DNA of 64,000 nt from a virus: the IMG/VR virus record IMGVR_UViG_3300010150_000009, positions 47,596 through 111,595 of that record; one strand, written 5' to 3'. The position numbers and the translations under genes are program-made. The notes beneath the pieces are model-generated. The model did not search any database, had not been told where the DNA came from, and worked only from the letters and a program-made list of their open reading frames with translations. Below, one piece after another: positions 3,702-50,381 of the stretch. Numbering within the stretch: the first letter of the stretch is position 1; every line of letters starts with the position of its first letter.

Positions 3702-4532
3702 ATGTTAGTTATATCCGGTGGTGACAGTTTTACGTTCGGTGCAGAACTTCCGGATGATGCCGGAGGCCCTAGTGAATTATGCTGGGCTAATTTAGTTTCT
3801 AAAAAATTAGATGCCCATATGCATATCAATACAGCCTCCAGTGGTAGAAGCAATTCTTTTATTACTCGACGTATATTATACACGGTCAATAAGGCATTAG
3901 AGAATGGGTATTTACCAGAGAATATTTTTGTTCAAATTATGTGGACATTTGTAGCAAGAAGAGAATTTAAGTTAATCAACGGAACGTTAAATGATCTAAT
4001 GTATAAACAAGATTCGGAATGGTTGGCTTTGGATCCATATTGTGCCACAAACGAGGCAAAATCAGACTGGTTTAAAAAGATACACCCCGACACGCCCAAT
4101 TACGCAAGCACCAAGTTTTCCTTAGAAAACAAGTATAATATTTACAAAGGTGCGGGCGTAGTAGACTTTGGTAAAGCATGGTATAATATTGTTAGCGACG
4201 AAGATGACGTATACTCAAGTTTAAAAGATATATTCTCACTTCAAAACTTCTTAAAAATTCATAATATTAATCATATATTTGCTTATACTGGGTATCATGT
4301 TCCTAAACAATTATTTGAAGATGAGACTAACGAATACGTTACTAGTTTGAGAAAAACAATTGACCAAGATTCTTGGTATCATTTTCCCGGAGACTGGCCG
4401 ACAAGCAAGTATATTGGTTTTAATGACTGGGGACTTATAAATAATTATGAATACGCTACATCACATCCTTTAGAAAAAGGACACGCAGATGCGGCAGAGT
4501 TAATTTATGAACACATTGAAAAGATATTATAA
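3702..4532 (+). CDS. SGNH/GDSL-type hydrolase-like protein
   Basis: 276 residues, starting directly after the previous stop. It opens with the block I nucleophile motif GGDSFTFGAEL and ends with the block V region SHPLEKGHADAAELIYEHI, where the Asp/Gly-x-x-His pattern supplies the catalytic His. SGNH enzymes are esterases or deacetylases, and carbohydrate O-acetyl esterases are common among phage and bacterial cell-envelope members. It is related to the gene at 4847-5515 and, more remotely, to the one at 36758-37357, giving three such proteins in this window. Substrate unknown; sugar de-acetylation is an inference from neighbours. Confidence 0.7.
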   Translation: MLVISGGDSFTFGAELPDDAGGPSELCWANLVSKKLDAHMHINTASSGRSNSFITRRILYTVNKALENGYLPENIFVQIMWTFVARREFKLINGTLNDLMYKQDSEWLALDPYCATNEAKSDWFKKIHPDTPNYASTKFSLENKYNIYKGAGVVDFGKAWYNIVSDEDDVYSSLKDIFSLQNFLKIHNINHIFAYTGYHVPKQLFEDETNEYVTSLRKTIDQDSWYHFPGDWPTSKYIGFNDWGLINNYEYATSHPLEKGHADAAELIYEHIEKIL

Positions 4533-5515: not shown

Positions 5516-7103
5516 CGCCGCAGCTAGCTTAATTGACAACGACGGCATTATACTTTTTGCAGGACATGCTGAACGTTACAGTAAGAAAAAACACGATAAG
5601 AATTTAAACCCCGGCCTAATAAAAGATGCTTTAAGTTTTAGTAATAGTCCTTTAGAAATAGTCGCATACTACGAAAATCCCTGGCTTAAGAAAACTCGCC
5701 AAGCATATTCTGGGCAGTGGGCAGATTTTTTTGATTTAGATAATATTAACATACGCAAGCAGTTACAAGAACAAACTAATTGCGTTGTGGGGAAAAACTG
5801 TAAATTTAAATACTACGGACATCACTTATCCCATGCGGCCGCCGGGTTTCAAACAAGCCCATTTGCTGATGCAACTGTAGTGGTCATTGATGCAATAGGA
5901 GAATGGGATACCATTACCATATGGGATGCAGAGTATGACAGAAACGGCAAAGCACAATATAAGAAAGTGTGGGGCGCAAAGTATCCAAACAGTATTGGTT
6001 TATTTTATAGTGCTATGACTGATCGCGTAGGCCTGCGCCCATTAGACGAAGAATATATCTTAATGGGAATGGCGGCATATGGGTTACCAATGTATACAAA
6101 AGATTTGATGGATACGTTTTGGGATATTAATGGTAAGAATATTATACGCATGAAAGAAAACTTACACGCTGGAACAGGCTGGCGCTCCGACGAGTTGATG
6201 GAAGAACAAGACAATTATGATATTGCCGCTTCATCTCAACAAGTATTAGAGTTTGTTGTAGGGCATATTATGGCCCATGCAAGGATAAGTTGTAAGTCTA
6301 AAAACTTAGTTTACATGGGTGGAGTTGCATTAAATTGTGTCGCTAATTCAAAGATAGCGAAAAATTGGAGCGACATTTGGATTATGCCTAACCCAGGCGA
6401 TGCTGGTAGTAGTTTAGGAGCCGCCGCATTAGCATACGGTAAGAGGTTAAGGTGGGAGAGTCCATATTTAGGATATAACATACCAGGTCAATACCCTGAA
6501 GTAGAGTTGTTAAAAGAATTATTAGAGGGTAATATCGTAGGTGTTGCTAACGGTAGAGCAGAGTTTGGACCACGCGCCTTAGGTAATAGAAGTTTGTTAG
6601 CAGATCCGCGTGGGAAACATATCAAAGACAAGGTAAATGAGATAAAGCGTAGACAAAAGTTTCGTCCATTTGCTCCAATGATACTAGAAGAGAAAGCAGA
6701 CGAATACTTTGAAATGCCCGCAACATTTGAATTTACGCCCAATCCAGACAATTCTGATTACGTGGTATTACACGGTATAAAGTTATTTCGTAACAGAACA
6801 AAACTTAGCTCACCTTATATGCAATATACAGCAAAGTGTAAACACCCAAAAGACTTCCCTGCCATAGTTCACGCAGATGGCACCAGCAGAGTTCAAACTG
6901 TAGGTCCTAATGATAATCCTGAGATAAGAAGTTTATTAAAAATGTGGGAATATTACACAGGCTGTCCTATGTTACTTAATACCAGTTTAAACATTAGGGG
7001 AGAGCCGGTAGTAAATAATTTTCAAGACGCAAAACGCTTTGAAGAAGCATACGGTATAAAAGTATTCACAATGGCTAAAGCGCCACCCCCGCCAACAAAA
7101 TAA
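5481..7103 (+). CDS. Carbamoyltransferase, NodU/CmcH family
   Basis: 540 residues, normal for the family. The N-terminal Kae1-like/ASKHA domain shows GVSYGFHDAAASL, the metal-binding HHLSHAAAGF and GGVALNCVANS; the C-terminal YrdC-like domain shows EFGPRALGNRSLLADPR, FRPFAPMI and NTSLNIRGEPVV. Family members move a carbamoyl group from carbamoyl phosphate through carbamoyl-AMP to a hydroxyl group of a sugar, antibiotic or Nod factor. Marine T4-like phages often carry it, and its target there is unknown. With adjoining SGNH, radical SAM and methyltransferase genes it fits decoration of a glycan or small molecule. The C-terminus ends in a Pro run (APPPPTK). Confidence 0.88.
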   Translation: MTILGVSYGFHDAAASLIDNDGIILFAGHAERYSKKKHDKNLNPGLIKDALSFSNSPLEIVAYYENPWLKKTRQAYSGQWADFFDLDNINIRKQLQEQTNCVVGKNCKFKYYGHHLSHAAAGFQTSPFADATVVVIDAIGEWDTITIWDAEYDRNGKAQYKKVWGAKYPNSIGLFYSAMTDRVGLRPLDEEYILMGMAAYGLPMYTKDLMDTFWDINGKNIIRMKENLHAGTGWRSDELMEEQDNYDIAASSQQVLEFVVGHIMAHARISCKSKNLVYMGGVALNCVANSKIAKNWSDIWIMPNPGDAGSSLGAAALAYGKRLRWESPYLGYNIPGQYPEVELLKELLEGNIVGVANGRAEFGPRALGNRSLLADPRGKHIKDKVNEIKRRQKFRPFAPMILEEKADEYFEMPATFEFTPNPDNSDYVVLHGIKLFRNRTKLSSPYMQYTAKCKHPKDFPAIVHADGTSRVQTVGPNDNPEIRSLLKMWEYYTGCPMLLNTSLNIRGEPVVNNFQDAKRFEEAYGIKVFTMAKAPPPPTK

Positions 7104-18363: not shown

Positions 18364-18585
18364 CTACCACAACATTCCTACAATATATATTACTGTTAAG
18401 CCAGCGTTGAGTACAATAAGGCTAGTTTCTTTCCATAGTATGCCCGTCAGTGTCCACATACTATTAGCAATAATAAACATCCAGACGTACTGAGGATGTA
18501 CATTAAATGCCGCTAATGTAGCCGCAAGTATTAATAACGCGGTACTTGTCCAAGCAAGTTTTTGATAAGGTTTTTTATTTTCCAT
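18364..18585 (-). CDS. Small membrane protein
   Basis: 73 residues with three likely membrane segments (residues about 9-26, 31-49 and 54-72). Layout recalls part of PnuC-like or small phage inner-membrane proteins, but it lacks a recognisable motif. Start overlaps the HAD phosphatase gene by 11 bases, indicating translational coupling. Confidence 0.55.
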   Translation of the reverse strand: MENKKPYQKLAWTSTALLILAATLAAFNVHPQYVWMFIIANSMWTLTGILWKETSLIVLNAGLTVIYIVGMLW

Positions 18586-19288
18586 GGGTTAATCTTCTCC
18601 AAGTATCTGTCCAACTAGTAACGTGATGCAACATGTCTTGTTCATTGTAGCGAATTCGTATTGCCTCTGCCAACGTGTAGTCGTTACCGCCGGGTTCCAT
18701 TCTATCGCCAAAGAAACTAATGTCATAGTCATCGAAGTCCCAAATAATCTGCGACTTATCACAGCCTAACTTGGAAATATCCAAGCCAGTTTCTCCTCCT
18801 ACAACTGCTTGGTATTCAGGAAACAGTCTATTAAATTCTTCTGCGATCGTGTGTCGTTCATTTGTTTTAACGTCCCATCTAACATAATCCGCACGTTCGT
18901 TAAGATTAGCGTTTCTACCTACCACGCTAAAGTTAATCATTCCAGGTCTGTTTTCAAAATGCATTCCTGTGCGTAATGGAAACTTACTAGCAACTAGTTT
19001 TTCTGTTAAGAAGTCGTGTGCTTTATTTTCAAGTTTCAACTCGTCTCCGTATATTTCGTCACCTTGCTCCCGCACACTATTACCGGAACAGTTATAGCAA
19101 CGTTGGACTGTATTACAAATCTCCTCTCCTAACTGCTCTACTGTCTTAGGATAGTCACTACCCGTTACTAAAAATACATGTTCTTGTTTAACCCAATCAG
19201 TAAACCATTCGCTGAATTCCGAATTTATTTTTTGTCTGCTAGGAGTTAAAGTACCATCAACATCAAAAATGTAAGCACGTCTGCTCAT
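18575..19288 (-). CDS. HAD-superfamily phosphatase, phosphomannomutase-like
   Basis: 237 residues. Motif I is YIFDVDGTLTPSR (DxDGT), VTGSDYP supplies motif II Ser/Thr, and DISFFGDRMEPGGNDY supplies the acidic motif IV. The cap arrangement and GRNANLNERADYVRWD region resemble eukaryote-type phosphomannomutases (PMM), which use the same HAD core to convert mannose-6-P to mannose-1-P. It could supply sugar nucleotides for the phage's glycan genes, or act as a sugar phosphatase. Overlaps the methyltransferase gene by 4 bases. Confidence 0.7.
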   Translation of the reverse strand: MSRRAYIFDVDGTLTPSRQKINSEFSEWFTDWVKQEHVFLVTGSDYPKTVEQLGEEICNTVQRCYNCSGNSVREQGDEIYGDELKLENKAHDFLTEKLVASKFPLRTGMHFENRPGMINFSVVGRNANLNERADYVRWDVKTNERHTIAEEFNRLFPEYQAVVGGETGLDISKLGCDKSQIIWDFDDYDISFFGDRMEPGGNDYTLAEAIRIRYNEQDMLHHVTSWTDTWRRLTHGK

Positions 19289-20565
19289 TCGAATAACCTC
19301 TCAAATTGTGTTAAAGTGTTTTCATTGGAAGAACTATAAACCCATATGGGCTCTACAAAACAGTCCTGCATATGTTCTTTGTCACCGCCTTCTTCGTTCT
19401 TTGGTCTTTGCTTCATACGCATACCGATGACTTCTTGTAGCGGCATACCAATACTATCCATAAAGTTTGTCATAGGATCGCATACATAATGTCTCTTGTT
19501 CTTAATATTAGCATCAATAATATTTACTGCTATAACGCCTGTTTGTGGATTAATTAGACTTTTAGTTTTCTCTAGCGTTACAAACAAAAAATCATTTAAC
19601 CAACTATCAAACTCTTTATACTTAAACCAACTTTGCGTTTCCTCTTTTATACCTTCTGCGTAGCGTTCTGTATTATAATATGGTGGACTAGTAAATGCTA
19701 GATCATAATTTAGTTCTGGAAAGTCTTTAATATCTTCTGCGGGTGCGTTAAAAATAGTTACTGTTTTAGCACCTTCATATCTAAACCATTCTAAACCATT
19801 GCATGCATTAAACTCCATTAACAGTCCGTCGTTGTTAAAAATATGATTGTCATAAAACTTACATTGCTCCATATATGTTTTATAAACGTTCGGATTTGGA
19901 TCACACCCTACATAAGTTTCTGCGTTACTTGTCCAAAAACCTGCTAATCTATCTCCCCAACCACAACTAGTATCTAATACTGTTTTAGCGTTAAACCTGT
20001 TATAAACATACTTGGCAACTGTAGGTTTAAACTGTGTCGCTACATACGCACCTAGTCTAAATGCTTCTCTATACTTGGCTTCGTCTACATACTTTACAAC
20101 GCCTTCGCGCCAAAATGTCCAGTTAAGTTTCTTTAATGCTTCTTCACTGCTCCATATATCTAATGGACTTTTATGTGACCAACCACTACATTTAAGTCTG
20201 TTCTGTTGCTGAAAGTAGTTACTAATATCGTTATAGTAGTGATTAATGTCTATAACGTCTTTACAGTATTTTTGAACAGAGTATTCGTAGTCATTAAACT
20301 TGTCTGTAATGGCAGTAGTATAACCATATAACAGTTTGTTATGGTCCATACCTTTAAGTTTTCTAAACCTATCTACTACATCGTTTTCAGTAATATCTTG
20401 AAACGGAAACGGAATGTTATTGTTGACAATGTAATGTGCGAACGCCTCTATTGCTTCTTTCTTTTCATATTGCCCTTTAAACTCTTGCCATTCATCCGCG
20501 GAAAAAACAGGCAACCCACTAGGACTTGCCTGCTTTTCTAATACTTTAAGTATTTTGTTTACCAT
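19285..20565 (-). CDS. DNA methyltransferase (TSPPYY motif)
   Basis: 426 residues. The catalytic motif IV is DLAFTSPPYYNTERY, typical of amino-group (N6-adenine or N4-cytosine) DNA methylases. The SAM site appears as TVLDTSCGWGDRLAGFW followed by VGCDPN. An N-terminal 150 residues probably serve target recognition. No paired restriction nuclease is adjacent, so it likely protects phage DNA or regulates it. Its start overlaps the end of the FG-GAP gene by 7 bases, placing it in the operon begun at the promoter near 23985. Confidence 0.8.
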   Translation of the reverse strand: MVNKILKVLEKQASPSGLPVFSADEWQEFKGQYEKKEAIEAFAHYIVNNNIPFPFQDITENDVVDRFRKLKGMDHNKLLYGYTTAITDKFNDYEYSVQKYCKDVIDINHYYNDISNYFQQQNRLKCSGWSHKSPLDIWSSEEALKKLNWTFWREGVVKYVDEAKYREAFRLGAYVATQFKPTVAKYVYNRFNAKTVLDTSCGWGDRLAGFWTSNAETYVGCDPNPNVYKTYMEQCKFYDNHIFNNDGLLMEFNACNGLEWFRYEGAKTVTIFNAPAEDIKDFPELNYDLAFTSPPYYNTERYAEGIKEETQSWFKYKEFDSWLNDFLFVTLEKTKSLINPQTGVIAVNIIDANIKNKRHYVCDPMTNFMDSIGMPLQEVIGMRMKQRPKNEEGGDKEHMQDCFVEPIWVYSSSNENTLTQFERLFE

Positions 20566-22628
20566 GAAGCCTTATACTTTGCTATAGCGCGAACATCGTC
20601 GTTACCTCGTAAATGATCCACGTCATTCATGTAACTAACACTAAACTCAATATTGTTATGCTTATTGATGCCCATGTCATACTGTAGAGTATAGTCAATA
20701 TGTCGTCCGTCAGGCTCCATATCTGCAATAAAGTCCGCAAACATCATCCCGCCCTGTTCAATGCGTAGCGGTTGGGTGATACCAAAGTTTAATCTGCCGT
20801 AATTTGCGTTTACACCAAAGCCCATTGCGTGGAAGTCCTCTACGTCTTTGACATAACCATAACTGCCGTTTGCTGTACCAAATGCGTAAGTGGCATTAGC
20901 ACTAAAGTTCCATTCACCAATGCTTTTCTTACGGCTAATATTAATATAACGAGTAGTGGGATCATCGACATGCATCAGGCTTTGTCCAGGCGCCCAACCC
21001 ATAAGGCTGTTATCAATACCAACCGCCACATCAACTTCTCCGTATCGCAAACCTACAACGGCGTTATCGATTTCCCCGTACTCGTCTGCTTTAGTAGCAC
21101 CAAACGTCAAGGCAGTATTAGTATCAAAGTTAAATACGGGAACCATATTAATGTCGTTAAAAGACATTAATTTACTGTTATCTATAAAGTGTCCCTGCAT
21201 GTTAAGGATCTGGTCTTTTACAAAACTTAACTGCCAAAAACGAGGGTCACGTCCTTTGATAACATCATGCATTGCGAACCTCGCATACCCTTTTCCAATT
21301 TGCTCTTCCTCTTCTTCCTCTTCTTCGCCTGGTACAGAAATAGTAGCCATTGGAGAGAGCAGTGTTCCAAAGGAACCGTCTTCATAAACAATAATCCAAT
21401 CCATGCGCCCGTCATTGTTGGCGTGGGTTGGAAACAAGGCTCCCTTTGATCCTGCATTAGGCACGTTAGCAAAAATTGCACTACCGAGTTGGCTAAACGT
21501 TCCGTTACCGTTGTTCAACCAAATACCGCCATGTTGTGATCCAACACTGCCAGCATAGTTTTGATAATGATTGACATAGAGATCGTTTTTGCCATCACCG
21601 TTTAAGTCAACGAGCATTGGTGCTTGTCCTTTAGAGTGCGGAACAGTTCCACTTATTCCGAATTGCTGTTTCAAACTTACACCACCTGCACCAGTAGCAA
21701 AAACACGAATCCAACTATTGGTAGCACAAACGTCACCACATTCGTCATACACGATGATGTCACGTCCATTGTTATAAACCGCTCTCAGTCCTGCTACTCC
21801 TGGAATCGTATCTGAGTGTATCTGCATTAGTGAGAACGATTCCCCACCATTGTTCTTGTATACGTTAATAGCACCGCCTCTTGCTGATACGCCATCAAGA
21901 GCAAATGCTCCTCCTGCTCCGGCAAACCCTCCTCCTGATCTAACATCCATATCTCCAGAAATAAGTTCGGGATATCCGTCACCATCCAGATCCATAAGTG
22001 TTCCTGCGAAGGCACTATTTTGCATACGAATCTGTCCAAGATCACTAACTTCTCCGTTTACGTTTTGTCCTCGTTCACCAGGATTGAAGCCAAGATAAAC
22101 CACCGTACCACCAGAGAAGCCAACAATATCCAAACGCCCGTCTTTATTGACGTCACCTACTGCCGATCCGTGCCAGTTGAAAACAGGTCCAGGCGCCGCA
22201 TTTATTCCGTTGTAAATAAGAGCAGGATTCGTTGCTCCACCGCCACCATTACCTAATGCAATTGGACCTTGTGCAAAGTAGTTACCAGTCCATTCATTTA
22301 CTGTTTCACTAGCGGCAACACCACCTGCGCGTGTAGGACTATAAGAGCCGTCTGGATTACTAAGAAATACATAAGGTTGGATTTTCACATCCCATCCCAT
22401 TGGGCATCCATTTTGACAATAAACTCCATGAGCGGCCGCAAAAACCATAACATCAGTATTACCATCACCATTCCAGTCTCTTGCTACAGCGTTACCGTTG
22501 TCAGCAAAGTGCTCTACCCATCCAACCGATCCGTGCCCTTGTACAAAGTTATAGGTACTGTCCAATGCGTATGCTGAAACGCTGTAAACAGTTGCGATAG
22601 CCGCCACTGCTAATTTACTAATATTCAT
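20559..22628 (-). CDS. Exported FG-GAP/VCBS repeat protein with outer-membrane-like C-terminus
   Basis: 689 residues from ATG 22628, chosen because it follows an AAGGAG site and gives a signal peptide (MNISKLAVAAIATVYSVSAYA); an in-frame start further up lacks both. FG-GAP-type Ca-binding loops recur: DWNGDGNTD, DVNKDGRLD, DLDGDGYPE, DLNGDGKND, suggesting a beta-propeller of about 400 residues. An acidic EEEEEEE linker follows. The last 190 residues have alternating polar/hydrophobic strands and end in Trp (YKASW), as in outer-membrane barrels. GC is higher than in most of the window. An outer-membrane propeller-barrel fusion is unusual in a phage; superinfection control or host-surface change is possible. 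Confidence 0.75.
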   Translation of the reverse strand: MNISKLAVAAIATVYSVSAYALDSTYNFVQGHGSVGWVEHFADNGNAVARDWNGDGNTDVMVFAAAHGVYCQNGCPMGWDVKIQPYVFLSNPDGSYSPTRAGGVAASETVNEWTGNYFAQGPIALGNGGGGATNPALIYNGINAAPGPVFNWHGSAVGDVNKDGRLDIVGFSGGTVVYLGFNPGERGQNVNGEVSDLGQIRMQNSAFAGTLMDLDGDGYPELISGDMDVRSGGGFAGAGGAFALDGVSARGGAINVYKNNGGESFSLMQIHSDTIPGVAGLRAVYNNGRDIIVYDECGDVCATNSWIRVFATGAGGVSLKQQFGISGTVPHSKGQAPMLVDLNGDGKNDLYVNHYQNYAGSVGSQHGGIWLNNGNGTFSQLGSAIFANVPNAGSKGALFPTHANNDGRMDWIIVYEDGSFGTLLSPMATISVPGEEEEEEEEQIGKGYARFAMHDVIKGRDPRFWQLSFVKDQILNMQGHFIDNSKLMSFNDINMVPVFNFDTNTALTFGATKADEYGEIDNAVVGLRYGEVDVAVGIDNSLMGWAPGQSLMHVDDPTTRYINISRKKSIGEWNFSANATYAFGTANGSYGYVKDVEDFHAMGFGVNANYGRLNFGITQPLRIEQGGMMFADFIADMEPDGRHIDYTLQYDMGINKHNNIEFSVSYMNDVDHLRGNDDVRAIAKYKASW

Positions 22629-22641
22629 TTCGACATTCTCC

Positions 22642-23946
22642 TTAACTATAGATTGTTTCGTAATATGCATGAGCACCAAACGGTGGCTTAGGTGCACCTT
22701 CAATTCTGTGAGTATGTATGACCCAACACACATCACAGTAATTCTCATCTCCCCATGAACCCCACGGATAGCCATCTGTAAATACTAAAAGTTTTTTAGG
22801 TTCAATGCCATTCTGTTTCATATACTCGTATACCACTTCAAAACTAGTACCACCACCGCCTACAATTTCATACTCATTAATCTCGTGGAGGTTGTCAGCA
22901 GTAAAGTCTTTGATGCTGTATACATCAGTATCAAAACAAAATATTTTAACGTTGAACGTAGTGTAGGCGTCCATAATGCCTTTAACTTCGCTAAGGAAGT
23001 CGCGCACCATATCTTCGCTGATACTACCACTAACGTCAATAGCAACAACCAAGTCGATTGTATCATCAGGAACCATACCAGGCAACATCACGCCAGTGTG
23101 CCACGCCTTACGGCTAGGACGCATAAAGGAGTAATCACTCTTTACAAGGCTTTTGATCTGCACATCAAGTAACTCACGCCAGTTCATCTTCGGCTCAGTA
23201 AGTTCTTTGAGCATACGTCGAACACCAGCAGGTACATTGCCTGCGCCGGCATTTTGCGCCGCTGACATAATCGCTTCCTTCATCTCATCACGAATTTCTT
23301 TACGCTCTTCTTCGGATAGTTTAGGGCGGCCGCCTTTACCGCCTTCTTTACCTTTTCCTTCTCCGTCTCCATCATTACCTTCGTCACTGTCATCGCTATC
23401 CAAGTGATCATCGAGAACCGCATCAAGCAGTTCGTCGATATCAATTTTCTCGGCGTTTTCGTAGAGATCGTCATACACCTCTTCAAACGACATGTCGTAA
23501 TACTTTCTGTCGTGTACAATAGGAACTTGATCAATAGCCTCGCCAATGCGATTAACAATCAAGTCGCCGTTGACACAATAGTCAGCGGCAATGTTAGACA
23601 GTTTAGGATCACGATCACCACGGCGTCCAATATGGTCGTATACAATATGAAGAACTTCGTGCCCAAACAAAAACTCAATCTGTTTAGGGGATAACTGCTC
23701 TACGAATTTCGTATTGTAGTAGAAACGACGGCCATCAGTAGCGGCGGTAGGCAACCATTCATCAGCATTTACGAGTGTCAGGCGTGTAGCCAGATTACCA
23801 AAGAACGGCTCTTTAAGCAGAAGCCCAATTCGGGCGGTTGTGAGTGACTCACGAACCTTTGCGTCAAGTTCGGAATCAGTCTCAAAGCCTACCTGCAAAA
23901 GCGGGTATTTCTCAGTTTTACTATTAGCGGTTGTATTTTGTGACAT
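22642..23946 (-). CDS. VWA-like protein with HExxH metallopeptidase-like domain
   Basis: 434 residues. Residues 96-100 are HEVLH within FLFGHEVLHIVYDH, a zinc-binding HExxH followed by a third possible ligand. A charged linker (Asp/Gly/Lys-rich, about 190-215) leads to a VWA-like domain starting near 300 with the MIDAS motif DVSGS and LLVFTDGYPWG. This layout matches the paired metallopeptidase/VWA family (DUF2201-type), usually found beside MoxR ATPases; one lies at 26050-27165. Such pairs remodel or insert cofactors into target proteins. First gene after the repeated promoter cassette; the FG-GAP gene follows after 13 bases. Confidence 0.82.
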   Translation of the reverse strand: MSQNTTANSKTEKYPLLQVGFETDSELDAKVRESLTTARIGLLLKEPFFGNLATRLTLVNADEWLPTAATDGRRFYYNTKFVEQLSPKQIEFLFGHEVLHIVYDHIGRRGDRDPKLSNIAADYCVNGDLIVNRIGEAIDQVPIVHDRKYYDMSFEEVYDDLYENAEKIDIDELLDAVLDDHLDSDDSDEGNDGDGEGKGKEGGKGGRPKLSEEERKEIRDEMKEAIMSAAQNAGAGNVPAGVRRMLKELTEPKMNWRELLDVQIKSLVKSDYSFMRPSRKAWHTGVMLPGMVPDDTIDLVVAIDVSGSISEDMVRDFLSEVKGIMDAYTTFNVKIFCFDTDVYSIKDFTADNLHEINEYEIVGGGGTSFEVVYEYMKQNGIEPKKLLVFTDGYPWGSWGDENYCDVCWVIHTHRIEGAPKPPFGAHAYYETIYS

Positions 23947-23979
23947 TTGTGTACTCGAGTTTTTACTTTCTATACTAAT

Positions 23980-24035
23980 ATTATAGCATTTATCTGCTGA
24001 TCTGTCACGGAAAATAGTGCTGTAAGTGCTTGATT
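23980..24035 (-). promoter_or_regulatory. Repeated promoter cassette, copy 1
   Basis: Minus strand: upstream box AATCAAGCACTTA (within 24035-24018), -35 GTGACA (24008-24003), 17-base spacer, -10 TATAAT (23985-23980). Drives the VWA, FG-GAP and methyltransferase genes. The box and spacing recur at 27.6, 31.0, 32.8 and 63.6 kb. Confidence 0.75.
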
Positions 24036-24047
24036 CGAAAAAGTTTT

Positions 24048-24491
24048 CTAAACATACTGATTCTTAGGAGTCATTGTGTCCTCGTTGAGTACTGTCTTGA
24101 TGGCATGACAGTCTAAACAAAGAGTCTGCAGATTATCATCGTCATTATTCCCATGATCACCATCTATATGATCTACTGTTAATAGAGTACGTATTAGTCG
24201 ATTTTTTATCTTAAGATCTTCTATTCGCTGTACACGGCTATCAGTTAGTGGAGTATAACCACAATGTTCACAGTGAGTTTTACGTTGGTGGCTATATACT
24301 TTTTTAGTAGTAGCCAGTCCTCCATATTCTGCTAGATTTTTTTGGTGATCCCTGCACAGATGCTCACTTCCAGGGCCTTGATAGGCTGTGAGAAAATTCT
24401 CACAGCCATCAATACTACATCGTGTTTTTCTGGCCTTTCTTAGTGCAACACCTTCTTTGAGAAGGTCTTTGTTTGGGTCACGTAAAGTCAT
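24048..24491 (-). CDS. HNH endonuclease
   Basis: 147 residues. Four zinc-binding cysteines (CSIDGC, CEHC and CLDC pairs) frame the HNH core TVDHIDGDHGNNDDDNLQTL, in which DH, the central N and the final CH (LDCHAIK) form the catalytic ββα-metal site. Could be a homing-type or DNA-processing nuclease. It overlaps the DGQHT-protein gene by one base (stop and start share the A of TAATG-like junction), so they are coupled. A free-standing homing enzyme would not usually be translationally coupled, which favours a joint function. Confidence 0.85.
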   Translation of the reverse strand: MTLRDPNKDLLKEGVALRKARKTRCSIDGCENFLTAYQGPGSEHLCRDHQKNLAEYGGLATTKKVYSHQRKTHCEHCGYTPLTDSRVQRIEDLKIKNRLIRTLLTVDHIDGDHGNNDDDNLQTLCLDCHAIKTVLNEDTMTPKNQYV

Positions 24492-25822
24492 TAACCTAAC
24501 TCCTTCTTTTTAAAGTCATACTGAAATTTACCAGTGAAGATTGGCAACTTTTTTGAAAATCCTGCTTTAGCAATTGCTTGACAAATCCAAGTAGGAGCAA
24601 CCTCTGTTTGATTGCATCGCTCGTTATATGCACTCTTAACCTGTGCATACTGTCTTTCATACCAACTCTGGTACGCTTCTTTAATCATCTTAGACTTTTT
24701 AGATGTATGTTTCCTCCAAGTATTCTCAGTAACGGCACCCAAATACTTTCCAAATTCACGCACATAATCATCGTCTACAGTAATTCCCTGTACGTCACAT
24801 GCACGAAAAATGTGTGCCATGTTGTCAATTTCCAGAGGTTCTATAGGCTTGTCTGAAAGAAACATATTGTGATACTGAAAAACCCGACGTAGCACACTAC
24901 TCTTCCACTTATTAACATCGCGCCCTGTTGCAGGAAATATTTCTGAAGGACGGGATACTGCGCCCGGCTCATCTGTATCTCCAAACTTTTCATGTGTAAA
25001 GAAACAGTTGAATTCTTCTAAAGCACTCTGAATTTCTTCGAAACGCACACTCCATGGATCTTTATCTCCGTTATTGCGTACAGACCAGACGTGTTGCATA
25101 TACAAATCAATCTTGTCCAAGGGCTTAGTCATAGTGTCATCGTGAACGCCAATAAAACGTTTTCGCAATTTAGAAATGTCACGGCCTGGGTAAATGGCTA
25201 CTGGTATCTCAAGTTCCATTGCTTCTTTTAAACTCATACCAAACGCAAACATAGCGACAGAGATCAACGCTAATGTCGTATGCTGGCCGTCCCAAATAGC
25301 AAACAAACCCTTGCGTCGATACTGAGTCTCAGCATCTGGATCTATGTCATAAGGGTACAAGCGAACAATGTTAACAAAGAAAGGATCAAATTTGCCAACA
25401 ATATCTAGTATCCAGTCAGAATCAACTACACGCTGGATTGATGCATTAATGAGCATGTTCTTGAGTTTAACACGCTCTTTCTTATTAGCAGACATTTGTA
25501 CCATGTCTGCATATATATCAGCAAATTCTTTATACTGTGGGTTACGATTGCGGAATTCCTCGCCTAGTTCTTTAAGAAAGTCTGGCAGGTCTGGATCTTT
25601 CTCAATGATAGCATCAATAAAACGTTCAACTAGTTCTACAATTGTATCTTCAGTAGTATTGAATTTTTCATTGAACTTTTTAGCGTAACTCCAATCGGAA
25701 TGGTAAGCAGAGTTAGTAGGAGAAAGATGAGAAAGATCTTCGATATTCTCAGGTCGGGATTGCCCGACAACTTCTTGTTTTAGATGTGCTGATTGCACAC
25801 CACGAAGGTGTAAAATAGTCAT
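24491..25822 (-). CDS. ParB/DGQHR-like protein
   Basis: 443 residues. The segment GLFAIWDGQHTTLALISVA near residues 174-192 is the DGQHR/ParB-like motif found in ParB-type CTPases and Dnd/phosphorothioation-linked proteins. Flanking VRLYPYDID and YPGRDISKLRKRFI fit the same fold. The rest is helical with no other motif seen. A strong promoter and a perfect 26-bp palindrome lie between the upstream terminator and the start; the RBS is AAGGA. The protein may bind its own leader DNA. Coupled to an HNH nuclease gene. Confidence 0.65.
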   Translation of the reverse strand: MTILHLRGVQSAHLKQEVVGQSRPENIEDLSHLSPTNSAYHSDWSYAKKFNEKFNTTEDTIVELVERFIDAIIEKDPDLPDFLKELGEEFRNRNPQYKEFADIYADMVQMSANKKERVKLKNMLINASIQRVVDSDWILDIVGKFDPFFVNIVRLYPYDIDPDAETQYRRKGLFAIWDGQHTTLALISVAMFAFGMSLKEAMELEIPVAIYPGRDISKLRKRFIGVHDDTMTKPLDKIDLYMQHVWSVRNNGDKDPWSVRFEEIQSALEEFNCFFTHEKFGDTDEPGAVSRPSEIFPATGRDVNKWKSSVLRRVFQYHNMFLSDKPIEPLEIDNMAHIFRACDVQGITVDDDYVREFGKYLGAVTENTWRKHTSKKSKMIKEAYQSWYERQYAQVKSAYNERCNQTEVAPTWICQAIAKAGFSKKLPIFTGKFQYDFKKKELG

Positions 25823-25876
25823 ATTGTTTTCCTTGTTCCGGTTAATAGAACGATTAAAGTAAGCTCTAATACGAGC

Positions 25877-25902
25877 GTAACGCTCGTTTAAACGAGCGTT
25901 AC
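25877..25902. promoter_or_regulatory. 26-bp perfect palindrome in leader of the ParB-like gene
   Basis: Arms GTAACGCTCGTTT and AAACGAGCGTTAC meet with no spacer, and a third half-site ACGAGCG sits at 25871-25877. It lies between the -10 (25940-25935) and the ATG (25822), so it can act as an operator in DNA or as a stable hairpin in the mRNA leader. High GC arms stand out in the AT-rich surroundings. Confidence 0.85.
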
Positions 25903-25934
25903 TTAGTAAGACATTATTGCCTTACTATCTAAAT

Positions 25935-25963
25935 AGTGTACTAAAAATTGTACAAATTGTCAA
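25935..25963 (-). promoter_or_regulatory. Promoter of the ParB-like/HNH genes
   Basis: Minus strand: -35 TTGACA (25963-25958), 17-base spacer, -10 TACACT (25940-25935). The transcript would carry a leader of about 110 bases containing the palindrome. Confidence 0.7.
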
Positions 25964-25995
25964 TCTTTTTTTAATATTTTTTAATAATTAAAAGT

Positions 25996-26034
25996 CCCCC
26001 CGGAGTTTATCCAGTATTGCACTGGCTCCGGGGG
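25996..26034 (-). terminator. Strong nested hairpin, probable terminator after the MoxR gene
   Basis: CTCCGGGGG/CCCCCGGAG outer arms and an inner CCAGT/ACTGG stem with loop of five bases. It lies 15 bases past the MoxR stop and is followed on the minus strand by ACTTTTAATT. The U-tract is imperfect, but the stem is very stable. Confidence 0.7.
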
Positions 26035-26049
26035 TTCCCAAGTACTCTG

Positions 26050-27165
26050 TCAGCCTTCCATCGCCGAGATTACATACTTGCCGAAGCGTTTATGAAACTC
26101 GTCAAACGACTTGAGTTTGCCCGGCACCAGCGGAAGGTTATAGTTAGTGAGTGCCATCTTAGCACCCATCACCGTAACTTCTGTAAGGAAGTTATCCATC
26201 ATAAAGCGGAAGAAGTTATCGCACATTTCGTGCCATTCTTTGCTCGGGTTAGCCTTTTTCGATTTATTAAAGGAATCCCGTAATTCGTAGCACATTGCGA
26301 CAGTCAGCGAGTACATTGCTGATACTTCTTTGACATCCAGTTTCTTAACACTACCGTTAAGAATGTCAGTCGGATTAGGCAGTTTGCCGGAGTGTTTGCG
26401 ATGGGCGTTAAACTTAATAGCCATCCCCTCGCCTACAGTACCAGCAACCAAATCAGTCACTTCGCCCTCAGACATTTCAACGTCATCTTCTTGATCGTTG
26501 AGTAACTCGCTCACAAACGTCCACGAGCGCGGAGTAGCAAAGGATCTCTCGTTAGAACCAGAATCGAAACTGTAGAGATCGTTCTTAGCGAACGTTAGAT
26601 AACCTAAAACATCCGGATGAATCTGTCGCTCAACTGCCCATTCCTGCCAAGTGTCAAAGTCGGCAGTCACTTCAATATGTACGAAGCGGTTAGCCAACGG
26701 GGCAGGCATACGGTATGTCACACCGCGGTCAGTTTCACGGTTACCAGCCGCCACAATAACGACATTATCAGGCAGTTCGTAAGTACCAATTCTGCGATTA
26801 AGCACCAACTGGTAAGCGGCGGCCTGTGTCGCCATCGGAGCAGAGTTCATTTCGTCCAAAAACAAAATAATAGTTTCAAACTCCTTGGCAAGTTCTTGTG
26901 ACGGCAAATCAACTGGTGGCGCCCAAGACATATTGTTTTCAGTCTGGTTGTAGTATGGAATACCGCGTAAATCGGTCGGTTCCATTAGAGCCAGTCGTAA
27001 ATCAATCATGTAACCGTTGACTTCACCAGCCAACTGATTAACCAGATCTGACTTACCGACTCCGGGAGGTCCCCAAAGGAAGACAGGTCGCTTACGAAGC
27101 ATCGCGCGTCTAATAGCCTTCTTGGCTTCCTTCAGGGTGTTAGTTCTGTTTTCTTGAGTGCTCAT
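26050..27165 (-). CDS. MoxR-type AAA+ ATPase
   Basis: 371 residues. Walker A is FLWGPPGVGKSDLV (residues about 29-42), Walker B is ILFLDEMNSAP, sensor I region is VVIVAAGNRETD, and the arginine-finger side shows MPAPLANRFVHIEV. MoxR ATPases work with VWA proteins as chaperone-like machines for metal insertion or complex assembly; the VWA/metallopeptidase gene 2 kb downstream is the likely partner. The RBS is AAGGAG. Higher GC (about 50 percent in parts) than the replication genes points to a separate origin of this island. Confidence 0.88.
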   Translation of the reverse strand: MSTQENRTNTLKEAKKAIRRAMLRKRPVFLWGPPGVGKSDLVNQLAGEVNGYMIDLRLALMEPTDLRGIPYYNQTENNMSWAPPVDLPSQELAKEFETIILFLDEMNSAPMATQAAAYQLVLNRRIGTYELPDNVVIVAAGNRETDRGVTYRMPAPLANRFVHIEVTADFDTWQEWAVERQIHPDVLGYLTFAKNDLYSFDSGSNERSFATPRSWTFVSELLNDQEDDVEMSEGEVTDLVAGTVGEGMAIKFNAHRKHSGKLPNPTDILNGSVKKLDVKEVSAMYSLTVAMCYELRDSFNKSKKANPSKEWHEMCDNFFRFMMDNFLTEVTVMGAKMALTNYNLPLVPGKLKSFDEFHKRFGKYVISAMEG

Positions 27166-49444: not shown

Positions 49445-49473
49445 ATTATATAATATTTTGTGTATTTTGTCAA
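49445..49473 (-). promoter_or_regulatory. Promoter of gene 45
   Basis: Minus strand: -35 TTGACA (49473-49468), 17-base spacer, -10 TATAAT (49450-49445). The sequence AATCAATTACTTAG, identical to the upstream box of the promoter cassettes, lies at 49444-49431, downstream of the -10. Confidence 0.78.
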
Positions 49474-50381
49474 GGCAACGGCTCTTGAGAAACATTTCTA
49501 AGGTATCCAAGACTTGGAGTGTCCTTAATACCTTGTGGTAGTTCGCCAGGTTTTTGTATGACTGCCCAACTAGTTCTAAATTGGTAATGGCCATCTGATA
49601 CTAAATCAAACCCATTTTTATTTGCCAATCCTTCTAATAGTTCTTTAGTCATATAGCAATAATAGTTACTCTCAAATTGTTCTGCTATTTTTGCTTGCAA
49701 ACAATCTGCGTAACTGATAAACGCTATTCCGCCAGGCAACAGTAAGTTGTAAATGCTGGCAAAGTACTTGTCTATCATATCGTAGGGCAGGTATTCGAAG
49801 TAGTTCCAACTAAAAACAAATGAAAATGTTTCCTGTGGTAATTGGCCAAAATTAGCATCTTCGTACTGATATACTCTAACTCTTCTTTTATAAACTTCTT
49901 GAAATTGAGCAGTCACTTCTTCAACAACATCTAAATCCTTACTTGCAATGAAAAAAGGATCCATGCCAGTCATATTTTTAGTCCATATATCACTACGCGG
50001 AGTTATTTCCAAACCAGGAAATTGAAAATTAATTTGCTTTTTAATGTTAGTTAAAACTAATGATTTTAATTCATCGTCCCAATGATTATCGTCTATTTTC
50101 TTTAATTTTCCATATTTTTTCACTTCATAATTATCATAACTGCGAGAAAGATTCTTTGGTTGAACATTCGAATAAAACTCTTGTTGTAGTTTTTCGTTTC
50201 CTGCATCAAGTTCTTGTTCTAATTCTATAATACTGTTTTCAAAAAGATCAAAAACATTAGTATCTAAATCAATCTTACTCTTCTTAAGAAATTGTTTAAT
50301 ATCTTTGTAGTTTTTTCTAATATCATCTGTATTGATGTTATCGAGCAACGCTTTTTCTTTAATATAATCTTTTAGTTTCAT
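49470..50381 (-). CDS. SAM-dependent methyltransferase-like protein
   Basis: 303 residues. FSFVFSWNYFEYLPYDMIDK and YNLLLPGGIAFISYADCLQ match the central and post-motif IV part of class I methyltransferases, with the SAM-binding core partly masked around residues 140-180. The first 100 residues are helical. Start overlaps gene 43 by 4 bases, so it is co-translated with DNA polymerase. Target unknown. Confidence 0.6.
   Translation of the reverse strand: MKLKDYIKEKALLDNINTDDIRKNYKDIKQFLKKSKIDLDTNVFDLFENSIIELEQELDAGNEKLQQEFYSNVQPKNLSRSYDNYEVKKYGKLKKIDDNHWDDELKSLVLTNIKKQINFQFPGLEITPRSDIWTKNMTGMDPFFIASKDLDVVEEVTAQFQEVYKRRVRVYQYEDANFGQLPQETFSFVFSWNYFEYLPYDMIDKYFASIYNLLLPGGIAFISYADCLQAKIAEQFESNYYCYMTKELLEGLANKNGFDLVSDGHYQFRTSWAVIQKPGELPQGIKDTPSLGYLRNVSQEPLP

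What the first reader, a model, noticed from the sequence alone, without database searches (positions are those of the whole stretch)
22642..27165. MoxR, ParB-like, HNH and VWA/metallopeptidase genes form an island
A MoxR ATPase and its likely VWA/HExxH partner flank a coupled DGQHT-HNH pair. The area has higher GC than the replication genes (one 60-base line in MoxR is 50 percent G+C; one in 49470-50381 is 25 percent). The gene set recalls multi-part defence or chaperone systems and is not a standard T4-like module. It may be a counter-defence or inter-phage competition system.
Basis: partly seen in the sequence, partly recalled or inferred. Interest (0 to 1): 0.7.

Follow-up and report, generated by a model that had tools for sequence, protein, structure and literature searches.

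The report
Two-gene nuclease cassette inside chaperone pair
The supposed four-gene island is a well-known pair of large-phage assembly-helper genes into which a small, mobile two-gene DNA-cutting cassette of a previously uncurated family has been inserted, and related cassettes in other phages pair the same kind of partner protein with different DNA-cutting enzymes.

Summary
All four genes are present at the stated coordinates, but they are two units, not one island. (1) MoxR plus VWA/DUF2201 metallopeptidase is a widespread large-phage pair. It was proposed in 2021 to be a chaperone/co-chaperone for virion assembly. VWA lies downstream of MoxR in 68 of the 68 top MoxR relatives in which it is visible. 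(2) The DGQHT gene and its coupled HNH gene sit on a 1,957-bp insertion (24036-25992). The closest relatives lack it: MoxR and VWA are directly adjacent in ten contigs with 81-88% identical MoxR, one of them 179 kb long. DGQHT is a new family with a predicted ParB/sulfiredoxin fold. It was found only in environmental viral contigs, always next to a nuclease gene overlapping it or within 4 nt. Alleles of the cassette have been exchanged between phages whose flanking genes are nearly identical. It also occurs away from MoxR. Divergent homologues are coupled to other HNH or GIY-YIG nucleases, and one candidate is fused to HNH. Best reading: a phage-carried, GmrSD-like two-subunit nuclease, probably aimed at competing DNA. 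Neither GmrSD nor DndB membership criteria are met. A homing-type mobile element is the main rival.

The parts
26050..27165 (-). MoxR-type AAA+ ATPase, intact Walker A (GPPGVGKS), Walker B (LFLDEMN) and sensor 1 (AAGN); part of the host phage's MoxR-VWA module
   Evidence: phrog_1297 E 8.5e-97; Pfam AAA_3/AAA_5 above cut-off; 853 GenBank phage records match
25996..26036 (-). Hairpin after MoxR, probable terminator (CCCCCGGAG ... CTCCGGGGG then T-rich); a similar stem is kept in the empty-site relative L050
   Evidence: fold z-score -3.95, 0 of 200 shuffles as stable; homologous stem in L050
24036..25992 (-). Inserted cassette (1,957 bp): own promoter-like site + DGQHT + HNH; replaces 6 bp (CATTTA) of the empty site seen in L050
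   Evidence: alignment to L050 empty site; ten near relatives lack it
25935..25963 (-). Promoter-like TTGACA-17-TACACT inside the cassette, upstream of DGQHT
   Evidence: 10 of 12 matches; overall number of such sites is not above chance
24491..25822 (-). DGQHT protein, 443 aa, new family with predicted ParB/sulfiredoxin fold; motif WDGQHT at residues 177-182 (DGQHT = 25277-25291)
   Evidence: AlphaFold2 mean pLDDT 79; Foldseek BFVD ParB/Sulfiredoxin E 3.2e-7 and DndB-like E 5.8e-5; divergent homologue L113 matches ParB-like phrog_1033 E 2.9e-5
24048..24491 (-). HNH nuclease, 147 aa, D107-H108 ... H129, with zinc-ribbon-like cysteines; start codon overlaps the DGQHT stop (TAATG); only HNH gene found in the 111.6-kb record
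   Evidence: PF01844 E 1.1e-5; invariant DH..N..H in 11 relatives
23980..24008 (-). Promoter-like GTGACA-17-TATAAT (extended -10) just upstream of VWA, outside the insertion and similar in empty-site relatives
22642..23946 (-). VWA/DUF2201 protein, 434 aa: N-terminal HExxH metallopeptidase-like domain (GHEVLH) and C-terminal VWA with MIDAS DVSGS; MoxR partner
   Evidence: PF13203 E 7e-40, PF09967 E 5e-16; phrog_1314 E 1.5e-112; 816 GenBank phage records match

Best explanation
Two unrelated units are nested. The outer unit is the phage's own MoxR-VWA chaperone/co-chaperone pair. The inner unit is a self-contained mobile cassette of two coupled genes. SHOWN by computation: the cassette is an insertion with empty sites in close relatives; DGQHT and HNH are always coupled; DGQHT is predicted to have a ParB/sulfiredoxin-like fold; HNH keeps its catalytic residues; both genes are under purifying selection; the cassette has been exchanged between phages independently of its flanks; divergent ParB-like homologues are coupled to HNH or GIY-YIG nuclease genes, some carry an extra nuclease-like gene, and one candidate homologue is fused to an HNH domain. 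INFERRED: the two proteins form a complex like GmrS-GmrD or SspE, in which the ParB/Srx-like subunit senses DNA and/or a nucleotide and licenses the nuclease subunit to cut. INFERRED with less confidence: the target is competing DNA (co-infecting phages or host/mobile DNA), as expected for a patchily distributed, allele-swapping cargo cassette.
For: Empty sites: L050-L059 (MoxR 81-88% identical) have MoxR-VWA gaps of 121-142 nt and no DGQHT/HNH; boundaries mapped; the 179-kb contig of L051 has no ParB-like homologue. Strict pairing: every DGQHT locus has a nuclease gene next to it, overlapping by up to 4 nt or within 4 nt. Fold: AF2 pLDDT 79 and Foldseek hits to viral ParB/Sulfiredoxin and 'sulfur modification protein' models; top PDB hit is a ParB but only E 0.11. 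Sequence chain: DGQHT to L117, L120, L116, L113, with L113 matching ParB-like phrog_1033. Independent exchange: L002 vs L007 share MoxR 98% and VWA 92% but DGQHT 67% and HNH 80%; DGQHT rejects the L002+L007 grouping (p-AU 0.002) while MoxR and VWA reject L002+L004+L005, the DGQHT grouping (p-AU 0.0009, 0.004); dS of L002-L004 is 0.50 for DGQHT against 1.76 and 1.71 for MoxR and VWA. Selection: dN/dS 0.03-0.12. Partners: HNH, GIY-YIG-like, PD-(D/E)XK-like extra gene, one ParB-HNH fusion candidate L132. Precedents: GmrSD is ParB/Srx + HNH, split or fused (PMC4619093); bacterial ParB-HNH fusions (PMC12704722).
Against: No activity is shown. The superfamily arginine is threonine in the DGQHT family, so this ParB-like domain may not hydrolyse NTP or cut. 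Neither DUF262 nor DUF1524 models match. HNH and GIY-YIG are also the classic homing nuclease types. The window cassette and some relatives lie at the same MoxR region, which a homing or hotspot model also explains. GIY-YIG and PD-(D/E)XK assignments are weak by profile (E 0.02-0.07) and rest partly on motifs read by eye. The L132 fusion link is E about 1e-7 by profile and could be a more distant ParB-like family.
Confidence: 0.6

Rival explanations
1. The cassette is a homing-type mobile element: the HNH (or GIY-YIG) enzyme cuts cassette-free alleles in co-infecting phages and the cassette is copied in; the ParB-like protein supplies DNA binding. It serves itself, with exclusion of rivals a side effect.
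For: Insertion into an intergenic site with empty sites in relatives; allele discordance; nuclease types are those of homing enzymes; PA5oct carries a different, Vsr-like 'putative homing endonuclease' at the same MoxR-VWA position; homing nucleases can act in jumbo-phage competition (PMC11620839).
Against: A conserved 400-aa ParB-like partner is not a feature of ordinary homing genes; the cassette sits at several unrelated sites; dN/dS is low over long divergence; the window record has no other HNH gene.
Confidence: 0.25
2. DGQHT-HNH serves the phage's own DNA metabolism or regulation: host DNA degradation, processing of replication intermediates, or DndB-like transcriptional control.
For: Strong purifying selection; DndB is a ParB-like regulator (PMC10853773) and a DndB-like model is among the Foldseek hits; some loci lie near replication genes such as a clamp loader.
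Against: Absent from the closest relatives, including a 179-kb contig, so dispensable; changing genomic sites; changing nuclease partner.
Confidence: 0.1
3. All four genes form one system: MoxR-VWA remodels or activates the DGQHT-HNH nuclease.
For: Linkage in nine contigs besides the window: seven carry the pair directly downstream of MoxR and L046/L047 carry it directly upstream; some divergent ParB-like homologues also lie 1-5 kb upstream of MoxR.
Against: MoxR and VWA occur without the pair in the closest relatives and in hundreds of GenBank phages with no pair match; the pair occurs without nearby MoxR or VWA, about 99 kb away in the 219-kb G025; discordant trees; promoter-like sites separate the units.
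Confidence: 0.05

Closest known systems
MoxR-vWA/metallopeptidase pair of group 2.2 jumbo phages (Iyer et al. 2021, PMC7824862)
   Same: Same two families, same order, vWA fused to an N-terminal metallopeptidase domain
   Different: Only that here a cassette lies between the two genes; no new function indicated
GmrSD / SspE / BrxU type IV-like restriction enzymes (DUF262 + DUF1524; PMC4619093)
   Same: ParB/Srx-fold protein with a DGQ motif plus HNH-superfamily nuclease, as two genes or (L132 candidate) one protein; mobile and patchy
   Different: DGQHT instead of DGQQR (Arg to Thr); classical HNH with cysteine zinc ribbon, no DUF1524 match; found only in viral contigs; other nuclease folds occur as partners
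DndB / DGQHR domain proteins (TIGR03187)
   Same: ParB-like fold; invariant QR pair upstream; four of five residues of the pentapeptide
   Different: No significant profile match (best E 0.089, one member); no dnd genes alongside; coupled to a nuclease
Phage ParB-CTPase-fold proteins such as DUF6551 (PMC12704722)
   Same: Phage-encoded ParB/Srx fold; weak DUF6551 matches for L117 and L132
   Different: Not within PF02195 or PF20188 by score; two-gene nuclease operon rather than the fusions listed there for phages
Free-standing homing endonucleases of phages
   Same: HNH or GIY-YIG, intergenic insertion, empty sites
   Different: Obligate second gene with a ParB-like fold; several insertion sites

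Membership tests
Jumbo-phage MoxR-vWA chaperone pair | MoxR AAA+ with intact Walker motifs | tested here: met
   motifs read in the sequence
Jumbo-phage MoxR-vWA chaperone pair | vWA with MIDAS fused to N-terminal metallopeptidase domain, encoded next to MoxR | tested here: met
   PF13203 + PF09967; VWA downstream of MoxR in 68 of 68 of the retrieved MoxR loci where VWA is visible; the other 12 are cut off by contig ends
Jumbo-phage MoxR-vWA chaperone pair | Role in virion assembly | not testable with these tools
   Proposed in PMC7824862; the PA5oct MoxR homologue carries an 'ESI-MS/MS' note in its record
GmrSD (type IV restriction) | DUF262 with DGQQR motif | tested here: not met
   No DUF262 match; motif is DGQHT, or DGAHT in L018/L019
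GmrSD (type IV restriction) | DUF1524 nuclease | tested here: not met
   Matches PF01844 HNH, not DUF1524
GmrSD (type IV restriction) | ParB/Srx-fold subunit paired with HNH-superfamily subunit | tested here: met
   by predicted structure and operon only
GmrSD (type IV restriction) | Cleavage of modified DNA | not testable with these tools
   needs biochemistry
DndB / DGQHR (TIGR03187) | Model match with DGQHR pentapeptide | tested here: not met
   best E 0.089 in one of 12 members; R replaced by T
ParB/sulfiredoxin superfamily (fold) | ParB/Srx core fold with motif at strand-helix junction | tested here: met
   AF2 pLDDT 79 and BFVD hits; PDB hit only E 0.11; model residues 137-141 strand and 143-156 helix bracket the motif
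Canonical partition ParB | PF02195/TIGR00180 match, HTH, neighbouring parA | tested here: not met
   no such match; no parA among the four genes or their scanned neighbours
Homing endonuclease element | Insertion with cassette-free allele in relatives | tested here: met
Homing endonuclease element | Nuclease cuts the cassette-free allele at the insertion site | not testable with these tools
   needs biochemistry
Known anti-phage defence systems (PADLOC) | Full-length match to a system protein | tested here: not met
   only weak domain-level matches, e.g. ZorE HNH region, E 7e-7 over 36 residues

The most novel reading that the evidence does not exclude
Large phages carry a previously undescribed class of mobile two-component nuclease in which a conserved ParB/sulfiredoxin-like sensor subunit is combined with exchangeable nuclease effectors of different folds (HNH, GIY-YIG, perhaps PD-(D/E)XK) and is used against competing phages or other DNA in the same cell.
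Probability: 0.3. Interest if true: 0.75.

Novelty: new variant of a known kind. Interest (0 to 1): 0.5.

Why it matters
ParB/Srx + HNH enzymes such as GmrSD and SspE are known as bacterial weapons against phages. Finding a phage-carried, allele-swapping cassette of the same general design, with a new ParB-like family that has lost the usual arginine and with nucleases of different folds as partners, would show phages using this architecture themselves. It also gives testable candidates for phage-versus-phage nuclease warfare. The locus also cautions that adjacency in one genome can join two unrelated modules.

Tried and rejected
Four-gene system: rejected by empty sites, unlinked copies and discordant trees. 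G+C contrast as an island mark: rejected, because the inserted pair has lower G+C than its flanks. The nearby methyltransferase (19285-20565) as a modification partner of the nuclease: considered because L117 has an ATG-overlapping MTase with 29% identity over 195 aa; rejected for the window because cassette-free relatives keep the same MTase. First AlphaFold run with six close sequences failed (pLDDT 38); adding divergent members gave pLDDT 79. Bacterial relatives: two pattern scans of 84,980 genomes found none, and GenBank phages and plasmids gave none; such scans miss divergent relatives. Solved-structure sequence searches for DGQHT gave nothing significant. The tree for HNH alone is poorly resolved.
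Full report
OBSERVATION. The window is 64 kb of a 111.6-kb virus record. MoxR (26050-27165), DGQHT (24491-25822), HNH (24048-24491) and VWA (22642-23946) are all on the minus strand. Families: MoxR phrog_1297; HNH PF01844; VWA PF13203 + PF09967 and phrog_1314; DGQHT matches no curated family. The DGQHT stop overlaps the HNH start, TAATG. G+C is MoxR 47.0, VWA 44.2, DGQHT 39.6, HNH 39.4 percent, so G+C does not delimit a four-gene island.

THE OUTER PAIR IS KNOWN. tblastn finds MoxR in 853 and VWA in 816 GenBank phage records with closely parallel host-genus counts; in the records seen in both listings the two genes are near neighbours, e.g. about 130 bp apart in RaK2 and 175 bp in Phosso. Among 80 retrieved environmental MoxR loci, 68 show VWA downstream on the same strand and the other 12 are cut off by contig ends. 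Iyer et al. 2021 (PMC7824862) described this MoxR and vWA-metallopeptidase pair in group 2.2 jumbo phages and proposed a chaperone role in virion assembly. The PA5oct homologue of MoxR carries an ESI-MS/MS note in its GenBank record. PHROG 1314, the VWA family, is labelled 'HNH endonuclease', and that label appears in several GenBank records; the protein matches no HNH model here.

THE INNER PAIR IS AN INSERTION. The ten closest relatives by MoxR (81-88%) have MoxR and VWA 121-142 nt apart and no DGQHT or HNH. Against L050 the window has 1,957 bp (24036-25992) in place of 6 bp; the MoxR hairpin and the promoter-like site before VWA stay outside. The insert carries its own promoter-like site; the total number of such sites in the region is not above chance, so this is weak. 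The 179-kb contig of L051 has no homologue of the ParB-like family.

THE PAIR TRAVELS TOGETHER AND APART FROM ITS FLANKS. DGQHT relatives (46-99% identity by tblastn, 38% for L046) were found in fourteen viral contigs besides the window record, some near-duplicates (L002/L003, L046/L047, and L006, which is 99% identical to the window copy), plus a more divergent one on G025. All have an HNH gene just downstream; in L005 and L020 a 196-aa gene intervenes, itself overlapping DGQHT. Between MoxR and VWA: window, L002/L003, L004, L005, L007, L020; L006 has the same MoxR-DGQHT-HNH order but its contig ends before VWA. Upstream of MoxR: L046/L047. Not near MoxR or VWA: L018, L019, L021, L022, L023 (these contigs are fragments) and L129, about 99 kb from MoxR on a 219-kb contig. 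L002 and L007 share MoxR at 98% and VWA at 92%, but DGQHT at 67% and HNH at 80%. DGQHT data reject L002+L007 as a clade (p-AU 0.002), while MoxR and VWA data reject L002+L004+L005 (0.0009, 0.004), the grouping of the DGQHT tree. L002-L004 dS is 0.50 for DGQHT, 1.57 for HNH, 1.76 for MoxR and 1.71 for VWA, so DGQHT was exchanged more recently than its flanks diverged, and HNH not always with it. dN/dS of both genes is 0.03-0.12.

WHAT DGQHT IS. An alignment of 12 members gave an AlphaFold2 model with pLDDT 79. Foldseek against viral models returns an uncharacterised phage protein (E 2.6e-9), ParB/Sulfiredoxin (3.2e-7) and 'Sulfur modification protein' (5.8e-5); the top PDB hit is a ParB at E 0.11, not significant. 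By sequence the family connects to L117, L120, L116 and L113, and L113, with a full DGQHR motif, matches ParB-like phrog_1033 at 2.9e-5. In the window family the motif is W-D-G-x-H-T, with Thr where the superfamily has Arg.

PARTNERS VARY. L113 and L131: DGQHR protein + HNH + a third gene containing an EHLIPA motif. L116 and L120: ParB-like protein followed by a GIY-YIG-like gene. L117: GIY-YIG-like gene overlapping DGQHT overlapping a methyltransferase. L005 and L020: an extra 196-aa gene with a weak MutH match (E 0.025) and an E-x-K motif. L132: a single 462-aa protein with a ParB-like half (hhalign probability 94, E 1e-7 to the family alignment) and an HNH half (E 2e-8). GIY-YIG and PD-(D/E)XK calls are weak by profile and partly by eye.

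MECHANISM. Shown: insertion, strict coupling, predicted fold, conserved HNH residues, purifying selection, exchange. Inferred: a two-subunit enzyme in which the ParB/Srx-like subunit senses DNA and/or nucleotide and the nuclease cuts, as in GmrSD (PMC4619093). Inferred with less confidence: use against competing DNA. ParB-fold domains bind ATP, GTP or CTP, and bacterial ParB-HNH fusions were reported in 2025 (PMC12704722), so the general combination is known; the phage cassette, the DGQHT family and the variety of partners were not found described in the papers searched, which is a limited library. Homing is the main rival because the nuclease types and the empty sites fit it too.

LIMITS. All relatives are environmental contigs, mostly fragments, so absence is weak evidence except for long contigs. 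The 80 MoxR loci are the best-matching of more than 549, not a random sample. Nothing biochemical was tested.

Noticed in passing
window 20559-22628 (-): 689-aa protein with a signal-peptide-like N-terminus, FG-GAP repeats and a C-terminal region that looks beta-barrel-like by eye; kept beside VWA in cassette-free relatives (41-73% identity), no match in GenBank phages.
   Followed up: partly
window 19285-20565 and 18575-19288 (-): Putative DNA methyltransferase (phrog_12517) and phosphomannomutase-like HAD protein; the MTase is kept in cassette-free relatives and the HAD gene follows it in three of them.
   Followed up: partly
PHROG 1314; e.g. NC_071039, NC_019526: The VWA/DUF2201 metallopeptidase family is labelled 'HNH endonuclease' in PHROGs, and GenBank records repeat the label; no HNH domain is found in the window member.
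   Followed up: yes
L008 (PA5oct) 5529-7025: A different nuclease (Vsr/MTES_1575-like, annotated as homing endonuclease) lies between MoxR and VWA, so this gap takes up nuclease genes repeatedly.
   Followed up: partly
L009 (SCTP-2) 3933-4211; L129 5095-7003; L021 10110-11144: Chaperone-type genes near MoxR-VWA or near the cassette: Cpn10-like gene between MoxR and VWA; GroES/GroEL-like genes after the cassette in L129; Hsp20-, ClpS- and SufB/SufC-like genes after it in L021 (all but the Cpn10 match read by eye).
   Followed up: no
L081 7226-9536: Two fatty-acid-desaturase-like genes and an acetyltransferase-like gene fill the 2.5-kb MoxR-VWA gap (read by eye), another cargo type at this site.
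   Followed up: no
L113 4031-4642; L131 507-1061; L120 1-465: Family of about 150-200 aa with an EHLIPA motif (46-54% identity) next to ParB-like genes; possibly a third component, perhaps HNH-like.
   Followed up: partly
L005 9263-9853; L020 9191-9781: 196-aa protein inserted between DGQHT and HNH, 89% identical between two phages whose DGQHT proteins are 65% identical, so recently moved; PD-(D/E)XK-like motif.
   Followed up: partly
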